DNA of 64,000 bases from Nocardiopsis suaedae (GCF_027706745.1 NZ_JAQFWP010000001.1:1-64000); one strand, 5' to 3'. Positions 40,037 through 48,424 are shown, counted from the first letter of the stretch. Translations and numbers: made by a program. Notes: generated from the letters alone by a model not told the origin.

Positions 40037-43000
40037 TCACCCGGCGGGGAAGACCACGTCGGCGTTCTCCTCCATGGCCTCCTCTCCGTTGTTGAGGAAC
40101 ACGATGCGGCCGTCTCCGTAGCGGGCGGTCCAGCCTTCGCCGAGGTCGAATTCGCGGAGTCCACCGCCGTCCACGGGGGACCAGCCCTCGGCTCCGGGAG
40201 CCATGGTGTAGCCGTTCGGTTCGGCGGAGGAGTCGTAGACGCAGTTCCCGTCGAATTCCGCTTCGGAGGCGTAGTCCGAGTCGGGCCCATAGGGCATGAG
40301 GACGGCTCGGGCGGCGCCCTCGTCATCGAACCAGGCGGCGCTCAGGCTTCTCCCGTTCTCCGGCAGGAGCACGGCCTGCGCCGATCCGTCGGCGAGGTCC
40401 ACCACGTGGGCCTCGGACACGGGGGCGCACGGTGAGGTGGACACGCCATAGGTGTGCGTGACGGCGACACCGAGGGTCTGGTCCGGGCTCACCGCGATGA
40501 CCGTCTCCTCGCTGTACTGGACGCTTCCGGTGTCCACGACGTGCCGGGCCTCCTCGGGGGAGAGGATCTCGTACAAGGCGGTCGTGAAGAAGTCGTTCGG
40601 ATCATCCCTGACGTGGGCGTAGGTGCGCAGCTCGCCGCCGGTCCACATCGGTGTGAGCTCGATGTTGGGCGCGATGTCCCCGGCCGGTCCCTCCGGGATC
40701 TCCGGGATGTCGTGCCCGGAGGGCTCACCACCGTCGTCGGGGTAGGTGAGCAGGTCGGCCTCGAAGCCCGTGGAGACGAGCGTGTCACCGAGGAAGCCGA
40801 TCGTGCAGGCGTCGCAGGTCCACGTGTGCTCCTGGTCGGCGGCCAGGTCGCGCAGGTGGATCGTCCACTCCTCGGTGGCGTCCGAGCCCGCCTCCTCCAG
40901 TTCCGACCACGCGACCTTGGTCCCGTCGGCCGACCAGGCCACCGACCCGGGGACCACGTCCTCTTCGAGGACTTCCACCTCCCCGCCGGGCTCGGTCACC
41001 CCCTTGAGCTCCCCTCCGCTGTTCCAGGCAACCGGGCGGAAGGCCGCCGCCGTCCCCGTCGCCTCGGCGCAGGCGCGGCGGTTGGCCGCGTCCTCAGGGG
41101 CGGTGGTGCTGATGCAGACGGTCAGGGCCGCGTCGGCCTGGACCGTGCAGGACTCGGCCCCTGGGCCCTCCTCGCACCCCCAGTACAGGAACGCGACGCC
41201 CTCCGGCAGAGGCGCGTCGGGGTCGACCTCGATGGGGCCGGTCTCGCCCTTCGCCGAGTCGACCACGGTGGTGCAGTCGGTTGTGCCGCCGCCGATGGCG
41301 CAGTCCTCGCCCGGCTCGCCCGGCATGGCGACCTCGGCCGCCGCCGTCGCCACCATGACGCTGACCGGAACGGTGTCGGACGTGAGCACCTGCTGCCCGA
41401 GCACCACCCCGCCGGCGGTGACCGCGGCCAGCCCTCCGCCGACCGCGAGCTTGGCGGTGAGCCCGGCACCGGCCTTGCCCGCGGTCGCGGTCGTCGAGGT
41501 GACCGTGGAGGAGACCGCGCCTCCCGGGTCGGCCGCCGCCGCGACCTCGGTCGCCAGGCCGCCGGACTGGTGGGCGGCCTCGGTGGCGACCTCGCCTCCC
41601 GGGGGCGGGGAACCGCCGGACAGGGCGTCGGCGGCCGACGACGCCTCATCCGTCCCGGACACCCCCGGGTCGGCGCCCACGTCGGAACCGCCTGTGTCGG
41701 CACCGGACGCGTCGGAACCGGTCTGGGCGTGTTCCGGCCCGCACAGCTCGGCCCCCTCCTCGGCGCCGCGTGCGGCGGCCTCGTCGCCCATCTCCCGCCA
41801 CAGGGCGGCGGCAGCGGCGAACCCGGCGGCTGCGGCGGCGCGCCGACCGGTGACCAGGCTCCGTACCCCCTCCTCGTGCAGGAAGTAGGCCAGAGCGCCC
41901 TTGTCGCGGGCGCGTTCGGCCGCCGCCCGCCCGCGCTCCACCAGCCGCCCCCAGGCGCCGGTCTTCAGCGAACAGGCGAGCGTCGGGGCGGCGGCGCGCG
42001 CCAGGCGGACGGCGGTCTCGGCGGCACCGGCGCGGTCCAGGGCGTCGACGGTGCGCGAGACCAGGCTTTCGGCGCCCGCCGCGTCGGAGGCGGAGCGGCC
42101 GGGGGCCGTCACCCAGTGGACGAGGCGGTCGGCGATGGCGGACAGTTCCGCGCCGCCCGAAGGCGTAACGGTCTCGGCCGCGCCGCCGTCGAGGCCGGGC
42201 GCCAGGCGGTGGCCCCGCTCGGTGGGGACCGCGATCCCCAGGCGTTCCAGGCGTTCACCGGCCGAGGCGGTGTCGGTGCCCGGTGCGGTCGCCGCTGCGA
42301 GCAGTCCGGTGTCGGCACCGCCGGGCCCGGCGAGCGCGAGTACGGACAGCACGGCGCGCTCGCCGGGTCCCAGTGTCCCCAAGAGACGCGGGAGCAGGTC
42401 GGGAAGCTCGGCAGGCCGCGCCAGCCTCCCCTGGGCTGAGGCGAGCAGGAGCCGGTGGGGGTTGCCCGAGGTGGCCAGGACCAGCTCGTCGGCCAGCGCC
42501 TGCTCGGACTCGTCCAGCGGGTGCCCCAGCGCGCGGGAGAGCAGGGCGAGTGCGTCCGCGTGCCCGAGGCCCTCCAGCGCCATCGCGTCCCCGTTCCCCC
42601 ACAGGGTGCGGCGGGTCGAGGAGACCAGCACGGCCGCATCGGGGAGCGTGTCCAGCAGAGATTCGAGGTCCTGCCGGGGGCATTCCAGGTCGTCCAGGAT
42701 GAGCGCGGCCCCGACACCGGTCATCAGGCGGCGCAGCTCCGCACCGGTCGGGCGGTAGCCGGGGGCGTCGAAGCAGGCGGTGAACACGTCCTGCAGGACG
42801 TCGCCGCGGTCCTGGCCCGCCGCGTCCACGAAGGCGACCCCGCCCGGGTCGGCCCGGGCTTCGTGGGCGCACATCCGCAGCAGGGTGCTCTTTCCGGTGC
42901 CGGAGGGGCCATAGACCTGCACGGCGCCGCTTTCGGCGAGGGCGCGGGTGACGGCGTCCAGCTCCCGCCCGCGCCCCAGGGGGGCGTGTACGCGGCGCGG

Positions 43001-43180
43001 AAGCAGGCGGACGTCCTCCCGGGGCCGGACCTCGGGCCGCCGCCCCTGCTGGACGACGGTGACGTGGGAGCGCTCGGCGGTGACCACGACATTGTGGTCG
43101 CCGACGACCATGGTCCCGGTGACGTCTCCGGCCACCTCGACCCAGTTGTCGGCTCCGCTTCCGCCGTCGGGCGGCGTCAC
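40037..43180 (-). CDS. Membrane-anchored STAND/NLR-like ATPase with amyloid-like N-terminal motif and exported cysteine-rich sensor
   Basis: A 1047-residue multidomain protein, unassigned to a named family. Residues 18-33 read GDVTGTMVVGDHNVVV, closely matching residues 15-30 of the adjacent gene product. An AAA/STAND ATPase follows: Walker A GPSGTGKST (91-99), Walker B LILDDLE (160-166) and GNPHRL (239-244). Residues about 345-480 are helical and repeat-like. Residues 480-570 form a Ser/Thr/Gly/Asp linker, and one transmembrane helix lies at about 577-597. The last 450 residues look like a beta-propeller or similar fold with at least ten cysteines, which suggests an oxidising exterior. Start GTG 43180 overlaps the small gene (GTGA). 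The signal and output are unknown. Inference: a sensor whose activation templates the neighbouring effector. Confidence 0.8.
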   Translation of the reverse strand: MTPPDGGSGADNWVEVAGDVTGTMVVGDHNVVVTAERSHVTVVQQGRRPEVRPREDVRLLPRRVHAPLGRGRELDAVTRALAESGAVQVYGPSGTGKSTLLRMCAHEARADPGGVAFVDAAGQDRGDVLQDVFTACFDAPGYRPTGAELRRLMTGVGAALILDDLECPRQDLESLLDTLPDAAVLVSSTRRTLWGNGDAMALEGLGHADALALLSRALGHPLDESEQALADELVLATSGNPHRLLLASAQGRLARPAELPDLLPRLLGTLGPGERAVLSVLALAGPGGADTGLLAAATAPGTDTASAGERLERLGIAVPTERGHRLAPGLDGGAAETVTPSGGAELSAIADRLVHWVTAPGRSASDAAGAESLVSRTVDALDRAGAAETAVRLARAAAPTLACSLKTGAWGRLVERGRAAAERARDKGALAYFLHEEGVRSLVTGRRAAAAAGFAAAAALWREMGDEAAARGAEEGAELCGPEHAQTGSDASGADTGGSDVGADPGVSGTDEASSAADALSGGSPPPGGEVATEAAHQSGGLATEVAAAADPGGAVSSTVTSTTATAGKAGAGLTAKLAVGGGLAAVTAGGVVLGQQVLTSDTVPVSVMVATAAAEVAMPGEPGEDCAIGGGTTDCTTVVDSAKGETGPIEVDPDAPLPEGVAFLYWGCEEGPGAESCTVQADAALTVCISTTAPEDAANRRACAEATGTAAAFRPVAWNSGGELKGVTEPGGEVEVLEEDVVPGSVAWSADGTKVAWSELEEAGSDATEEWTIHLRDLAADQEHTWTCDACTIGFLGDTLVSTGFEADLLTYPDDGGEPSGHDIPEIPEGPAGDIAPNIELTPMWTGGELRTYAHVRDDPNDFFTTALYEILSPEEARHVVDTGSVQYSEETVIAVSPDQTLGVAVTHTYGVSTSPCAPVSEAHVVDLADGSAQAVLLPENGRSLSAAWFDDEGAARAVLMPYGPDSDYASEAEFDGNCVYDSSAEPNGYTMAPGAEGWSPVDGGGLREFDLGEGWTARYGDGRIVFLNNGEEAMEENADVVFPAG

Positions 43181-43620
43181 TCCCCGTCCCCGCCTTCGCC
43201 GCCGAAGTGGCGGGAGAACTCGGCGGCCACGGCGTCGCCCGCGTGCTCGACGAGCCGCCCGACGAAGGGGTGCACGATGAGCGCGGTGACGGCTCCGGCG
43301 AGCGCGGGCAGGCGCTTGGCGAACCAGTCGCGCACGTAGACCATGGTCGAGACCTCGGGTTCCTCGGCGGTGACCGCCTCTTCGAGTTCGTCGATCCGCT
43401 CGCGGGCGGAGTCCGCCCCCTTCCCGGCCTCCCGGTCGATCCGCTCGCGCAACGCGGCGAAGCCGGAGCGCAGCGACTCCAGGTCGGCGCCTTCGGCCAC
43501 AGGGACGTCCTGGGGCCCTCCATGGATCGCGACGACGTTGTTGTCCTCGCCCACGACCACCTGTCCGGAGACGTCGCCCGTCTCCACCCGGTACCGCTTG
43601 CCCGTCCCGCCCTCACCCAT
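43177..43620 (-). CDS. Small putative effector with RHIM/amyloid-like motif and membrane segment
   Basis: A 147-residue protein unlike any family I can name. Residues 15-30, GDVSGQVVVGEDNNVV, share about 10 of 16 positions with the neighbouring ATPase. The pattern V-x-V-G-x-x-N-x-V resembles the RHIM core of RIPK1/RIPK3 and bacterial NLR-associated amyloid motifs. Residues 46-83 are predicted coiled coil (ESLRSGFAALRERIDREAG). Residues 104-120 form a hydrophobic segment, then an amphipathic tail. ATG 43620 has AAGGGG upstream. It is translationally coupled to the ATPase. The architecture parallels fungal HET-S/NWD2 pairs and suggests a membrane-acting effector; this is inference. Confidence 0.72.
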   Translation of the reverse strand: MGEGGTGKRYRVETGDVSGQVVVGEDNNVVAIHGGPQDVPVAEGADLESLRSGFAALRERIDREAGKGADSARERIDELEEAVTAEEPEVSTMVYVRDWFAKRLPALAGAVTALIVHPFVGRLVEHAGDAVAAEFSRHFGGEGGDGE

Positions 43621-44045: not shown

Positions 44046-44762
44046 ATGGCGGACTCGCGTGGCGCCCGGCCTGAACGCGTCCCCGACGTCCACGTCGTCG
44101 GTGTCGACGGGTGCGCGGGCGGCTGGGTCGCCGTGCACCTCCGTGAAGGGGTGTTCAGCGGGGCGCGTTTCCACGCCCGGCTGTGCGCGTTGGTCGACGG
44201 GGCGGAAGGCGGCGTGATCGCGATCGACGTCCCGCTGGGGCTTCCCCCGGACGGGCGGCTCTGGCGCGAGTGCGACCTCCGGGCCCGCTCGGCCCTGGGT
44301 CCCCGCAGGGGAAGCGTGTTCCCGGTGCCCTCCCGCCGGGTCCTGGAGTGTACGAGCCGGGAGCAGGCGGACCGGGTCCAGCGGGAGCTCGCGGGAAAGG
44401 GGGTCGCCGCCCAGGCCTTCGCGCTGTTCCCGAAGATCCGTGAGGCCGAGGAGCAGCGCCGCAGGGGCGTCCGGCTGCACGGGGTCCACCCGGAGGTCTC
44501 CTTCGCCGCGATGGCCGGCGGCCCGCTCGCCTGGAGCAAGCGGACATGGAACGGGCAGGCGCAGCGGCTCCGGCTCCTCGGTGCCCAGGGCATCTCCCTT
44601 CCCGACGACCTGGGGCAGGCGGGTCCGGTTCCTGTGGACGACGTTCTCGACGCCGCGGCCGCGGCATGGTCCGCGAAGCGGATCGCCGACGGGGTGGCGG
44701 GCAGTCTGCCCGACCCCGCCGACCGCGACGAGGGCGGTGGGCCGGTCGCCATCCGGTTCTGA
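44046..44762 (+). CDS. DUF429 family protein (predicted RNase H-like nuclease)
   Basis: A 238-residue DUF429 protein. Family motifs are VVGVDGCAGGWV, VIAIDVPLGLP, FPVPSRRVL, HGVHPEVSFAAMAGGPL and VDDVLDAAAAAW, with Asp/Glu residues placed as in RNase H-fold nucleases. The biological substrate is unknown. ATG 44046 is preceded by GAGGAG. It is divergent from the NLR-like operon and followed by the DUF1330 gene 144 nt later. Confidence 0.88.
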   Translation: MADSRGARPERVPDVHVVGVDGCAGGWVAVHLREGVFSGARFHARLCALVDGAEGGVIAIDVPLGLPPDGRLWRECDLRARSALGPRRGSVFPVPSRRVLECTSREQADRVQRELAGKGVAAQAFALFPKIREAEEQRRRGVRLHGVHPEVSFAAMAGGPLAWSKRTWNGQAQRLRLLGAQGISLPDDLGQAGPVPVDDVLDAAAAAWSAKRIADGVAGSLPDPADRDEGGGPVAIRF

Positions 44763-45373: not shown

Positions 45374-45943
45374 TCAGGCGCACTGCCAGAGGAACCGGCC
45401 CTCGCCCGTCTCACTGTTCAGGAACGCGTAGCCGATTCCCGCGTCGCCGAAATTCACGTCGAACGGCGCTTTGCAGCTGTCCAGTTGGAGCACGTGCTCC
45501 CACGTTCCCGGGGCCTTCGGTTCCTCGTTGCGCTGGAGCCAGGCGGGGGCGCCTCCCAGGAAGGTGAAGGACTCGTCGTCCGTGTCGGGGGCGGAGGTCA
45601 CCGCGACGTGGTCCGGGCCGTGCGTTGGGCCCGTCTCCAATGGAGCGACCTCATAGAAGCTCGCGGGGCGTCCCGGCTGGGCGAAGAACGCGTTCTCCCC
45701 GCCGTCGGGCTCCCACGTGCCTTCGACGAACTCCCCGTCCTCCTCCTCGGTCATGAAGAGGTAGCCGAGGCGCACCCCGGCGCCGGGCAGGCGGACCTGC
45801 CCGATGAACCGCATGGGGTTGCCGGTCTCCGCCGACAGCGGCCACGCGGGCTCTTCCAGCCAGACCGGCTGTCCGCCGAACTTGGTGACCGGTTCCCGGA
45901 CCGGGACGTCGGACTTCTCGAATTGCAGGACCTGCTTGTCCAA
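45374..45943 (-). CDS. DUF1963/YwqG-like protein, paralogue A
   Basis: A 189-residue soluble protein. Motifs are VTKFGGQPVWLEEPAWPLS, NPMRFIGQVRLPGAGVRLGYLFMT, GPTHGPDHVAV and GYAFLNSETGEGRFLWQCA. Four paralogues in this window share these and a cysteine at or one residue from the C terminus. The start is TTG 45943 after AGGA, matching the 189-residue length of paralogue C. It has its own ECF-type promoter (46007-46032), and the CBS gene lies just upstream on the same strand. Function unknown; DUF1963 proteins are widespread and uncharacterised. Confidence 0.82.
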   Translation of the reverse strand: MDKQVLQFEKSDVPVREPVTKFGGQPVWLEEPAWPLSAETGNPMRFIGQVRLPGAGVRLGYLFMTEEEDGEFVEGTWEPDGGENAFFAQPGRPASFYEVAPLETGPTHGPDHVAVTSAPDTDDESFTFLGGAPAWLQRNEEPKAPGTWEHVLQLDSCKAPFDVNFGDAGIGYAFLNSETGEGRFLWQCA

Positions 45944-46006
45944 GGGGGGTTCCTGTCTGTCTGTGGGGTGGTGCAGGGCCCAGATCCCCGCCGTGTCGGT
46001 GGTACC

Positions 46007-46032
46007 GACGGATGGGGCGGAGGAGCGGTTCC
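46007..46032 (-). promoter_or_regulatory. ECF-type promoter of DUF1963 paralogue A
   Basis: Minus-strand -35 GGAACC (46032-46027), 16-bp spacer, -10 CGTC (46010-46007). The same arrangement precedes paralogues B, C and D. The start codon lies about 60 nt downstream. Confidence 0.75.
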
Positions 46033-46138
46033 TCTGGAGACGGGCGGGGCGCTGAACGGCGCCAGGACCGTTCCGGCGCACAACGGGACCGAGGGGCGCC
46101 TCACGGCGGCCCCTCGGTCGGAATCCGGTCGGGGAGCG

Positions 46139-46567: not shown

Positions 46568-46735
46568 GTCCCGGCCTCCTCGGCTCGGATTCCTGATGGA
46601 CGGGGCCGTCCACAGGCCTCTCCCGGTCAACGCTAGGAGCGTCCCGGCAAAAGGCACGACACATGGCGGGTCCGGACTCGCCAAAGGCCGCAGGGGCGGG
46701 TGGCGGACGGCGCCGGAGAACGCGGTGCGTTTCGG

Positions 46736-46763
46736 GGAACCGGATCGCTCCCGGACCCGTCTT
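46736..46763 (+). promoter_or_regulatory. ECF-type promoter of DUF1963 paralogue B
   Basis: -35 GGAACC (46736-46741), 16-bp spacer, -10 CGTCTT (46758-46763). The downstream word TTGTCCGTTG is nearly the same as at paralogue D. Confidence 0.78.
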
Positions 46764-46816
46764 GTCCGTTGCCGGGGGGCGCACAGGGCGCCGCCGGATC
46801 GGGACGAGGAGATCGC

Positions 46817-47563
46817 ATGACCGTTGAGGACCTGCGGACCCTGCAGATCGGCAGGCTGGTGCCCCTGGCCGAGGGGGAGTCCGTGCGGGCGGACGACGGC
46901 GGACCGGCGACCAGGCTCGGCGGCCAGCCGGACTGGCTCTCCGAGCCGGAGTGGCCCCTGGCGTCCGGGAAGGCCCAGCGCTTCATCGCGCAGGTGCGGC
47001 TCCCCGGCTCCGAGCCGAGGATGGCCTACATCTTCATGGAGGACGACGGGTTCGGCGACCAGGACCCGGACTTGGGCGACCTCAGTGAGTACGACTGGAA
47101 CACCGACGTCCCGTCCACCTACCGCGTGACCGACTCCCACGCCCCCAACACCGTCATCGTCCAACCAAACGGCACACCCCGCGTCCCCACCGCGCCGGTC
47201 GCGGAGGGCCCGACCCTGCACAACATCGTCCCTGGCCAGGCCATGCCCGTGGCGTACCGGGTGGAGCTCGCGCCGTACGTCCCGGAGACGGTGGAGGCGG
47301 AGGTCGAGGGGGAGGAGGACGTCCCGGTCGCCTGGTGGTCGGGTGACGCGAAGTTCGACGAGGAGGAGGACCGCCCCGACGTCCAGGTCGGAGGGAAGGC
47401 CTTCTGGCTCCAGATGCAAGAGGTGCCTGACGACTGGCACCACGTGGCCACCATCGACTCGGCCACCGACAAGTACTCCATCAACTGCGGCGACAGCGGC
47501 CTCGCCTACGCCTTCCTGAACCCCGAGCAGACCAACGGCGTCCTGATCACCCAGTCCTGCTGA
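46817..47563 (+). CDS. DUF1963/YwqG-like protein, paralogue B
   Basis: A 248-residue member of the four-copy set (RLGGQPDWLSEPEWPLASG, RFIAQVRLPGSEPRMAYIFM, KYSINCGDSGLAYAFLNPEQ, ending TQSC). It is longer than A and C because of an acidic central insert. ATG 46817 has GAGGAG 5 nt upstream and an ECF-type promoter about 55 nt before that. It is divergent from the CBS gene and from A, and its closest relative is D. Confidence 0.83.
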   Translation: MTVEDLRTLQIGRLVPLAEGESVRADDGGPATRLGGQPDWLSEPEWPLASGKAQRFIAQVRLPGSEPRMAYIFMEDDGFGDQDPDLGDLSEYDWNTDVPSTYRVTDSHAPNTVIVQPNGTPRVPTAPVAEGPTLHNIVPGQAMPVAYRVELAPYVPETVEAEVEGEEDVPVAWWSGDAKFDEEEDRPDVQVGGKAFWLQMQEVPDDWHHVATIDSATDKYSINCGDSGLAYAFLNPEQTNGVLITQSC

Positions 47564-47700: not shown

Positions 47701-48270
47701 TCAGCAGCAGTGCCAGAAGAAGCGGCCCTCGCCGGTCTCCGTGTCCAGGAAGGCGTAGCCGGTGCCCGTGTCGCCGAAGTTGACGTAGAACGGCACGTCA
47801 ATGCTGTCCAGCTGGAGTATGTGCTCCCACGTTCCGGGGGCATCAAGAAGCACATCGGGGGCGCCTCCCAGGAAGGTGATGCCGCCTCCGACGAACGGGA
47901 TGGAGTCGGGGTCGTACGTCACCGCGACGTGGTCGGGGCCGTGCGTCGGGCCGGTCTCCAGCGGGGCGGCCTCGTAGAAGGAGGCGGGGCGTCCCGGCTG
48001 GGCGAAGAAGGCGTTCTCCCCGGCCTCGGGATCCATGGTCTCGTAGCCGTGCCCGTCCTCCTCCTCGGTCATGAAGAGGTAGCCGAGGCGCACCCCGGCG
48101 CCGGGCAGGCGGACCTGCCCGATGAACCGCATGGGGTTGCCGGTCTCGGCTGACAGCGGCCATTCCGGCTCCTCCAGCCAGACCGGCTGCCCGCCGAGCT
48201 TGGTGACCGGCTCCCGGACCGGTTCGTCGCACTTCTCGAATCGCAGGAATCGCGGGGTCTGCTCGTCCAC
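47701..48270 (-). CDS. DUF1963/YwqG-like protein, paralogue C
   Basis: A 189-residue paralogue of A, with long identical blocks (GGQPVWLEEP, NPMRFIGQVRLPGAG, TEEEDG, GENAFFAQPGRPASFYE). It ends FFWHCC. GTG 48270 is preceded by AGGAGG at 7 nt, and its promoter matches the ECF type. It is the C member of the second cassette copy. Confidence 0.83.
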   Translation of the reverse strand: MDEQTPRFLRFEKCDEPVREPVTKLGGQPVWLEEPEWPLSAETGNPMRFIGQVRLPGAGVRLGYLFMTEEEDGHGYETMDPEAGENAFFAQPGRPASFYEAAPLETGPTHGPDHVAVTYDPDSIPFVGGGITFLGGAPDVLLDAPGTWEHILQLDSIDVPFYVNFGDTGTGYAFLDTETGEGRFFWHCC

Positions 48271-48335
48271 AGGGGGCCTCCTGGCCGTGTGCCGAATGTG
48301 GCAGGGGACCGGAGTCCCTACCGTGTCGGGGAATC

Positions 48336-48361
48336 GACGGGCGCGACGGGGGGCCGGTTCC
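48336..48361 (-). promoter_or_regulatory. ECF-type promoter of DUF1963 paralogue C
   Basis: Minus-strand -35 GGAACC (48361-48356), 16-bp spacer, -10 CGTC (48339-48336). The start codon is about 65 nt downstream, as for A. Confidence 0.75.
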
Positions 48362-48365
48362 GACG

Positions 48366-48424
48366 CCGTCCACCAGGGGGCTTCCCGACCCACGTTAGGA
48401 ACGGCCGGGCAGAGCGCACGCCAC
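48366..48424 (-). other. Leader block homologous to the CBS gene's upstream region
   Basis: CCGTCCAC, CCCG, ACG-TAGGA-CG and GGCA align in order with 46606-46663, the upstream region of the CBS gene in cassette 1. Here the CBS ORF is missing and the block abuts the paralogue C promoter. It marks a deletion of the CBS gene in the second copy, or its insertion in the first. Confidence 0.55.

What the first reader, a model, noticed from the sequence alone, without database searches (positions are those of the whole stretch)
40037..43620. Two-gene system: membrane NLR-like ATPase plus small effector sharing a RHIM/amyloid-like motif
Seen: residues 15-30 of the small protein (GDVSGQVVVGEDNNVV) and 18-33 of the large one (GDVTGTMVVGDHNVVV) match closely, while the rest of the two proteins is unrelated. 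The genes overlap by 4 nt. The large protein has Walker A, Walker B and GNPHRL motifs. The small one has a coiled coil and one hydrophobic segment. Known: in fungal NLR systems (NWD2 with HET-S) and bacterial NLR-associated amyloid signalling, a receptor and an adjacent membrane-active effector share a short amyloid motif. RHIM cores read V/I-Q-V/I-G-x-x-N. Inference: the ATPase oligomerises on a signal and templates the small protein to act on the membrane, causing defence or regulated cell death.
Basis: partly seen in the sequence, partly recalled or inferred. Interest (0 to 1): 0.88.

Follow-up and report, generated by a model that had tools for sequence, protein, structure and literature searches.

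The report
Membrane receptor–effector pair sharing a motif
In soil bacteria of the genus Nocardiopsis, an immune-type (NLR-like) receptor probably anchored in the membrane and a small neighbouring protein carry the same short motif; related receptors carry it with many different partner proteins, and the two copies in a pair change together, which points to a plug-and-socket switch that may trigger defence or cell death.

Summary
A motif profile hits only these two genes in the genome. Relatives form one receptor family: N-terminal motif, STAND ATPase (Foldseek: Avs3, CED-4, resistosomes), hydrophobic segment, variable Cys-containing tail probably outside the cell. I collected 20 receptor–effector pairs. 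Partners are otherwise unrelated: small helical types, cyclase-like, TIR, Ser/Thr kinase, and small helical proteins with the motif at the C-terminus. Gene order varies freely. Within a locus the two motif copies match beyond chance (permutation p=5e-6), above all at one position (15/18 identical, 3.8 expected). Where a cyclase-like domain is fused to the receptor, the motif is degenerate. Most likely, receptor activation clusters its motif, which recruits and templates the effector's copy. Homotypic coupling is well supported; amyloid is inferred; membrane damage and defence are plausible but untested. It works like NWD2/HET-S and bacterial BASS systems, but is not a strict RHIM (no core Gln) and differs in spacing from the BASS3 peptide (G-x4-G, not G-x3-G). 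Receptor architecture and N-terminal effector motif differ from the published Bell scheme. New variant of a known kind.

The parts
43177..43620 (-). small effector gene (147 aa): N-terminal motif plus C-terminal six-helix bundle
   Evidence: homologues at 34-84% identity; AlphaFold2 model
43531..43578 (-). shared motif in the effector, residues 15-30 GDVSGQVVVGEDNNVV; predicted disordered in the monomer (pLDDT about 40)
43204..43506 (-). helical domain of the effector, residues 39-139; no convincing Pfam, NCBIfam, PADLOC or PDB fold match
43249..43305 (-). most hydrophobic stretch of the effector, residues 106-124 ALAGAVTALIVHPFVGRLV (mean Kyte-Doolittle 1.68)
40037..43180 (-). receptor gene (1047 aa), GTG start overlapping the effector stop by 4 nt
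43082..43129 (-). shared motif in the receptor, residues 18-33 GDVTGTMVVGDHNVVV; predicted strand-turn-strand (pLDDT about 66)
42431..42988 (-). STAND/NLR-type NTPase core, residues about 65-250
   Evidence: AAA_16 E=3.8e-7 and nSTAND models below their cut-offs; Foldseek STAND, Avs3, CED-4 and plant resistosomes
42884..42910 (-). Walker A, residues 91-99 GPSGTGKST
   Evidence: sequence; G94 and G96 invariant
42458..42466 (-). GxP motif typical of STAND NTPases, residues 239-241 GNP (G and P invariant)
41399..41455 (-). candidate transmembrane segment, residues 576-594 (Kyte-Doolittle 1.61, borderline here; 1.8-2.5 in most homologues)
40040..41398 (-). variable C-terminal domain with 10 cysteines, inferred to be extracytoplasmic, presumed sensor
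   Evidence: weak choice-of-anchor D domain match in the homologue L022

Best explanation
A two-protein signalling switch. The large protein is a STAND (NLR-like) receptor, probably membrane-anchored, with its ATPase and N-terminal motif in the cytoplasm and its variable C-terminal domain outside. A signal makes the ATPase oligomerise (inferred from the fold), which brings several copies of the motif together. The clustered motif adopts a beta-arch assembly and recruits and templates the same kind of motif at the N-terminus of the small protein (homotypic coupling: strongly supported by comparison; amyloid nature: inferred). The small protein's helical bundle with its hydrophobic helix then oligomerises on and damages the cell membrane, giving regulated cell death or another defence outcome (inferred). 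In sister loci the same receptor family uses the same motif with other outputs: TIR, cyclase-like, kinase and other helical proteins.
For: Shared motif confined to these two genes in the genome. The pair is kept across genera in every orientation: tandem with the effector first (Nocardiopsis, L021, L024, L062), tandem with the receptor first (L023, L060, L053, L061, L135), divergent (L022, L059) and convergent (L108). One receptor family pairs with unrelated partners that share only the motif: helical type A, helical type B, cyclase-like, TIR (E=4.9e-14), Ser/Thr kinase (E=2.9e-33), and small helical proteins with a C-terminal motif. Profile comparison of type A against the C-terminal-motif group aligns the motif alone (E=1.9e-6). 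Motif sequences match within loci: 20 pairs p=5e-6, 18 deduplicated p=5e-6, type A alone p=0.008; one position is identical in 15/18 against 3.8 expected. In L133 both partners replaced the otherwise near-invariant Asn by Ala. Cyclase-receptor fusions (L128-L130) have a degenerate motif. Receptor fold is STAND/NLR. Hydrophobic segment followed by a Cys-containing tail in all 14 receptors checked.
Against: No experiment; amyloid formation not tested. AlphaFold2 gives the motif low confidence. The effector's helical domain matches no known pore-former, and its hydrophobic stretch is only moderately hydrophobic. Some receptors with a motif have no partner nearby (L051, L121, L122, L136), and one cyclase-like protein with the motif has no receptor nearby (L054). 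The receptor's transmembrane segment is borderline in the window. No defence-island or phage link was found; the locus has conserved flanks in congeners. Gene conversion or shared descent within loci could add to motif similarity, although simple shared descent does not predict the same residue in two otherwise unrelated proteins.
Confidence: 0.6

Rival explanations
1. Homotypic coupling without amyloid: the motif is a beta-arch that stacks into a finite beta-solenoid or augments a small sheet, linking receptor and effector stoichiometrically without prion-like templating.
For: In the PDB the motif profile resembles hexapeptide-repeat beta-helices (dynactin 6, LpxA), though only weakly (E 0.13 and worse); the receptor copy is modelled as strand-turn-strand; covariation needs contact, not fibres.
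Against: The layout (short disordered motif at a terminus, NLR plus effector, swappable outputs) is that of systems whose motifs do form amyloid (PMC7889193, PMC8086366).
Confidence: 0.25
2. Regulatory rather than lethal: the outside domain senses a cell-envelope cue and the effector adjusts membrane or envelope physiology; not defence.
For: Probable extracytoplasmic tail, conserved flanks in Nocardiopsis, absence from phage and viral collections, kinase and cyclase-like partners fit signalling.
Against: Patchy presence (4 of 6 genomes of the genus), a plasmid copy next to Tn3 genes, TIR partner, rapid change of tail and effector; all typical of conflict systems.
Confidence: 0.3
3. Chance or convergent low-complexity similarity of two G/V/D-rich stretches.
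For: In the window alone the score is only about 2.3 SD above shuffles.
Against: Pairs in 20 loci with matched motif variants; unique in its genome.
Confidence: 0.02
4. The small protein is an inhibitor or cap of the receptor: its motif binds the receptor motif and keeps it off.
For: Some partners are little more than the motif (L055, 100 aa), which could act as caps.
Against: Most partners carry effector-type domains, and a cyclase-like domain is fused to the receptor in L128-L130.
Confidence: 0.1

Closest known systems
Bacterial amyloid signalling (BASS1-10) with Bell effectors, Dyrka et al. 2020 (as described in PMC7889193, PMC8086366, PMC9815663)
   Same: Adjacent or overlapping NLR and effector genes in multicellular actinobacteria; short motif at the NLR N-terminus repeated in a small helical effector; other effectors such as TIR also reported; the Frankia BASS3 peptide has a V-G-D-x-N core like this one.
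   Different: Motif at the N-terminus of the effector here (Bell: C-terminus); G-x4-G spacing and no core Gln; the receptor has a hydrophobic segment followed by a tail inferred to lie outside; kinase and cyclase-like partners. The original paper was not held, so its supplementary motifs could not be checked.
Fungal NWD2/HET-S and PNT1/HELLP
   Same: NLR and membrane-active effector genes side by side sharing an amyloid motif; helical effector with a hydrophobic segment.
   Different: No sequence relation shown; HET-S and HELLP carry the motif at the C-terminus.
Metazoan RHIM proteins (RIPK1/RIPK3)
   Same: Hydrophobic-x-hydrophobic-G-x-x-N core pattern; one relative (L135) joins the motif to a Ser/Thr kinase.
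   Different: Core Gln absent, no RHIM profile match; RHIM is C-terminal to the kinase in RIPK3 (own knowledge), here the motif is N-terminal.
Avs and other antiphage STAND NTPases
   Same: STAND fold of the ATPase (Foldseek Avs3 E=8.4e-9).
   Different: Avs proteins carry fused effectors and cytosolic sensors (own knowledge); here the effector is usually separate and the tail is probably outside. PADLOC gave only a weak mad8 hit (5.5e-6) over residues 65-169, the ATPase region.
EACC1 and EAD systems (eLife 52696, eLife 70394)
   Same: Short adaptor modules shared between receptor and varied effectors in multicellular bacteria.
   Different: Those adaptors are helical domains, or a one-TM protein paired with caspases; RHIM is not mentioned in either main text, and amyloid once in one of them.

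Membership tests
NLR-effector amyloid signalosome (general kind) | NLR/STAND NTPase and effector encoded by adjacent genes | tested here: met
   4-nt overlap in the window; adjacency in 20 loci in all orientations; STAND fold
NLR-effector amyloid signalosome (general kind) | same short motif in both proteins, otherwise unrelated | tested here: met
NLR-effector amyloid signalosome (general kind) | motif pairs matched within a locus | tested here: met
   permutation p=5e-6
NLR-effector amyloid signalosome (general kind) | motif forms amyloid and seeds the partner | not testable with these tools
   needs peptide or in vivo prion assay
RHIM | core (V/I)-Q-(V/I)-G-x-x-N | tested here: not met
   core reads V-V-V-G-E-D-N and M-V-V-G-D-H-N: no Gln; no RHIM returned in Pfam or PDB sequence searches
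BASS3 | matches the BASS3 motif | tested here: inconclusive
   only one BASS3 peptide available (Frankia VDLRDAKGVQVGDGNVQINRF, PMC8086366); it scores 7.6 bits in the motif profile, reached by 11 of 2000 shuffles; spacing differs by one residue
Bell effector family | small helical domain with hydrophobic helix and C-terminal motif | tested here: not met
   the window effector has the motif at the N-terminus; its helical domain does not align with the C-terminal-motif relatives; no Bell profile was available
Known pore-forming effector (HeLo, MLKL, gasdermin) | fold similarity | tested here: not met
   no PDB fold match at E<=0.001; limited by the quality of a 9-sequence model
STAND/NLR ATPase | Walker A/B, GxP motif and STAND fold | tested here: met
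   Pfam hits lie below their curated cut-offs

The most novel reading that the evidence does not exclude
A new class of signalling motif (G-x4-G-[DN]-x-N) runs a plug-in system in which transmembrane NLR-like receptors with outside sensors drive interchangeable effectors (helical membrane proteins, TIR, cyclase-like, Ser/Thr kinase), and pairing specificity rests largely on one or a few matched residues of an amyloid-type beta-arch, giving bacteria a code of insulated death or defence circuits.
Probability: 0.45. Interest if true: 0.87.

Novelty: new variant of a known kind. Interest (0 to 1): 0.74.

Why it matters
How amyloid-type motifs keep signalling pathways apart is an open question. Here nature supplies matched and mismatched receptor-effector pairs, a candidate specificity position, and fusions with a degenerate motif as internal controls, so pairing specificity can be tested directly. 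It also suggests that NLR-type switches in bacteria can be wired through the membrane to outside signals, and that one motif can drive many outputs, including a kinase as in necroptosis.

Tried and rejected
Small protein searched in plasmids, phages and viral contigs: no match; receptor in phages and viral contigs: none. Strict RHIM membership rejected (missing Gln, no profile hit). Fold search of the effector gave nothing usable. Weak hits of the first family search (L013-L020, E 2.6e-4 to 0.01) were left aside as lying outside the motif or unconvincing. A first coupling test misaligned L061, and one L133 receptor string used was wrong; both were corrected and only one search is used. An alignment with wrong coordinates (A6) was discarded. 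Streptomyces receptors L109-L120 lack the first half of the motif and show no motif-bearing partner; treated as a motif-less branch. A phylum-wide motif search found only the window genome at E<=0.001 among 218, but it missed G441, which has the system, so its sensitivity is limited.

Full report
What is in the window. Two genes on the minus strand overlap by 4 nt: a 147-aa protein (43177-43620) and a 1047-aa protein (40037-43180). BLASTP aligns them only there (E=9e-4). Taken alone this is modest, since a shuffle test of the ungapped score gives 49 against 37.7 +/- 4.8, so I looked for independent evidence.

Is the motif a common stretch? No. A profile of 23 motifs that excludes all Nocardiopsis sequences ranks the receptor (E=3.9e-7) and the effector (0.036) first and second among all six-frame translations of the 7-Mb genome; the next is 0.64. 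Among 218 genomes spread over the phylum only the window genome passed 0.001, though sensitivity is limited: G441, which has the system, was missed.

Conservation. The small protein has close relatives in three congeners (N. halophila, N. chromatogenes, N. endophytica) and distant ones in other genera and one other family. All of these lie beside a receptor of the same type. The order changes: effector then receptor (Nocardiopsis, L021, L024), receptor then effector (L023, L060), divergent (L022). In the Nocardiopsis relatives the flanks are partly conserved; two of six genomes of the genus had no hit.

One receptor family, many partners. Motif-only hits and receptor searches led to 20 receptor-partner pairs in which both proteins carry the motif. 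Partners are: type A helical proteins as in the window (6 loci); type B small helical proteins (L052, L059) and a further small helical one on a Streptomyces plasmid (L061, beside Tn3 transposase genes); cyclase-like proteins (L053, L127, L133, L138, and L058 with the motif at the C-terminus; only weak similarity to class III cyclases, E 0.03-0.05); a TIR protein with the motif at the C-terminus (L108, PF13676 E=4.9e-14); a Ser/Thr kinase with the motif at the N-terminus (L135, PF00069 E=2.9e-33); an almost bare motif protein (L055); and small helical proteins with the motif at the C-terminus, the order described for Bell (L062, L125, L132). hhalign of type A against the last group aligns the motif and nothing else. 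The kinase and TIR cases rest on one locus each.

The two copies in a pair change together. Over 18 aligned positions, receptor-effector similarity within loci exceeds that across loci (mean BLOSUM 52.0 against 40.8; permutation p=5e-6 for 20 pairs and for 18 after removing close relatives; p=5.5e-5 after also dropping the four most striking loci; p=0.008 for the six type A loci). The residue two before the first central Gly is identical in 15 of 18 pairs, 3.8 expected. Examples: L023 VGRDMRGPLITGDYN / VGRNMTGHIVTGDGN; L061 VGGDAIGQFSTGDHN / VGGNAVGQLNTGDNN; L133, where both partners have Ala in place of the near-invariant Asn. This is what a homotypic contact predicts.

Natural controls. In L128-L130 a cyclase-like domain is fused to the N-terminus of the receptor and the motif is degenerate. 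In twelve Streptomyces-group receptors (L109-L120) the first half of the motif is missing and no motif-bearing neighbour was found. Against the simple picture, L051, L121, L122 and L136 have the motif but no partner nearby, and L054 is a partner without receptor.

Structure. The receptor N-terminal 450 residues fold with mean pLDDT 85; best PDB fold matches are a STAND-TPR protein, Avs3, CED-4 and plant resistosomes; the motif is modelled as strand-turn-strand at low confidence. All 14 receptors compared have a hydrophobic stretch after the ATPase and helical region, then a variable tail with 2-12 cysteines, often preceded by a Pro/Thr/Ser-rich linker; this suggests an outside sensor, but the window's segment is borderline (1.61). 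The effector is modelled as six helices with a disordered motif; no fold match.

Mechanism. Shown by sequence: pairing, motif sharing, coupling, interchangeability. Inferred from the families: ATP-dependent oligomerisation of the STAND core. Inferred by analogy with NWD2/HET-S, PNT1/HELLP and BASS/Bell systems (PMC7889193, PMC8086366, PMC7885112): amyloid-type templating. Least certain: that this helical bundle damages the membrane and that the outcome is defence.

Comparison with the known. The general kind is known: bacterial NLR-effector pairs with shared amyloid motifs in actinobacteria and cyanobacteria, including BASS3, which is RHIM-related and whose Frankia peptide aggregates (PMC8086366). 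The present motif shares V-G-D-x-N with it but has one residue more between the glycines and lacks the core Gln; the single available BASS3 peptide scores only weakly. I could not read Dyrka et al. 2020 or its supplement, so overlap with an unlisted BASS family cannot be excluded. The receptor architecture, the N-terminal motif on the effectors, and the cyclase-like and kinase partners were not found in the papers searched.

Verdict. Observation confirmed; interpretation partly supported. New variant of a known kind, with an unusually clean data set for testing specificity of motif pairing.

Noticed in passing
window 45374-46081(-), 46700-47563(+), 47701-48393(-): Three DUF1963 (PF09234) genes close together; the first and third both align to the same gene in relatives at DNA level. 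A local gene family next to the pair.
   Followed up: partly
window 44046-44762(+): DUF429 gene (E=6.7e-49) upstream of and divergent from the effector; kept beside the pair in N. halophila and N. chromatogenes.
   Followed up: partly
L135:6910-7836(+): Ser/Thr kinase, closest to AfsK in its kinase domain, with the motif at its N-terminus beside a receptor: a kinase-plus-motif layout reminiscent of RIPK proteins. Single case.
   Followed up: partly
L061:9665-10561(+): Neighbour of the plasmid-borne pair carries two further glycine-rich stretches (AVGGNNSGGISTGE, AIGGDNTGPLSTGD), perhaps another adaptor motif.
   Followed up: no
L109-L120: Streptomyces-group branch of the receptor family with a conserved N-terminal GDxLLTVNPVDGSEIE in place of the motif and no partner; what it does instead is unknown.
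   Followed up: no
L054:8154-8885(+): Cyclase-like protein with the motif but no receptor gene nearby; its receptor may be encoded elsewhere.
   Followed up: no
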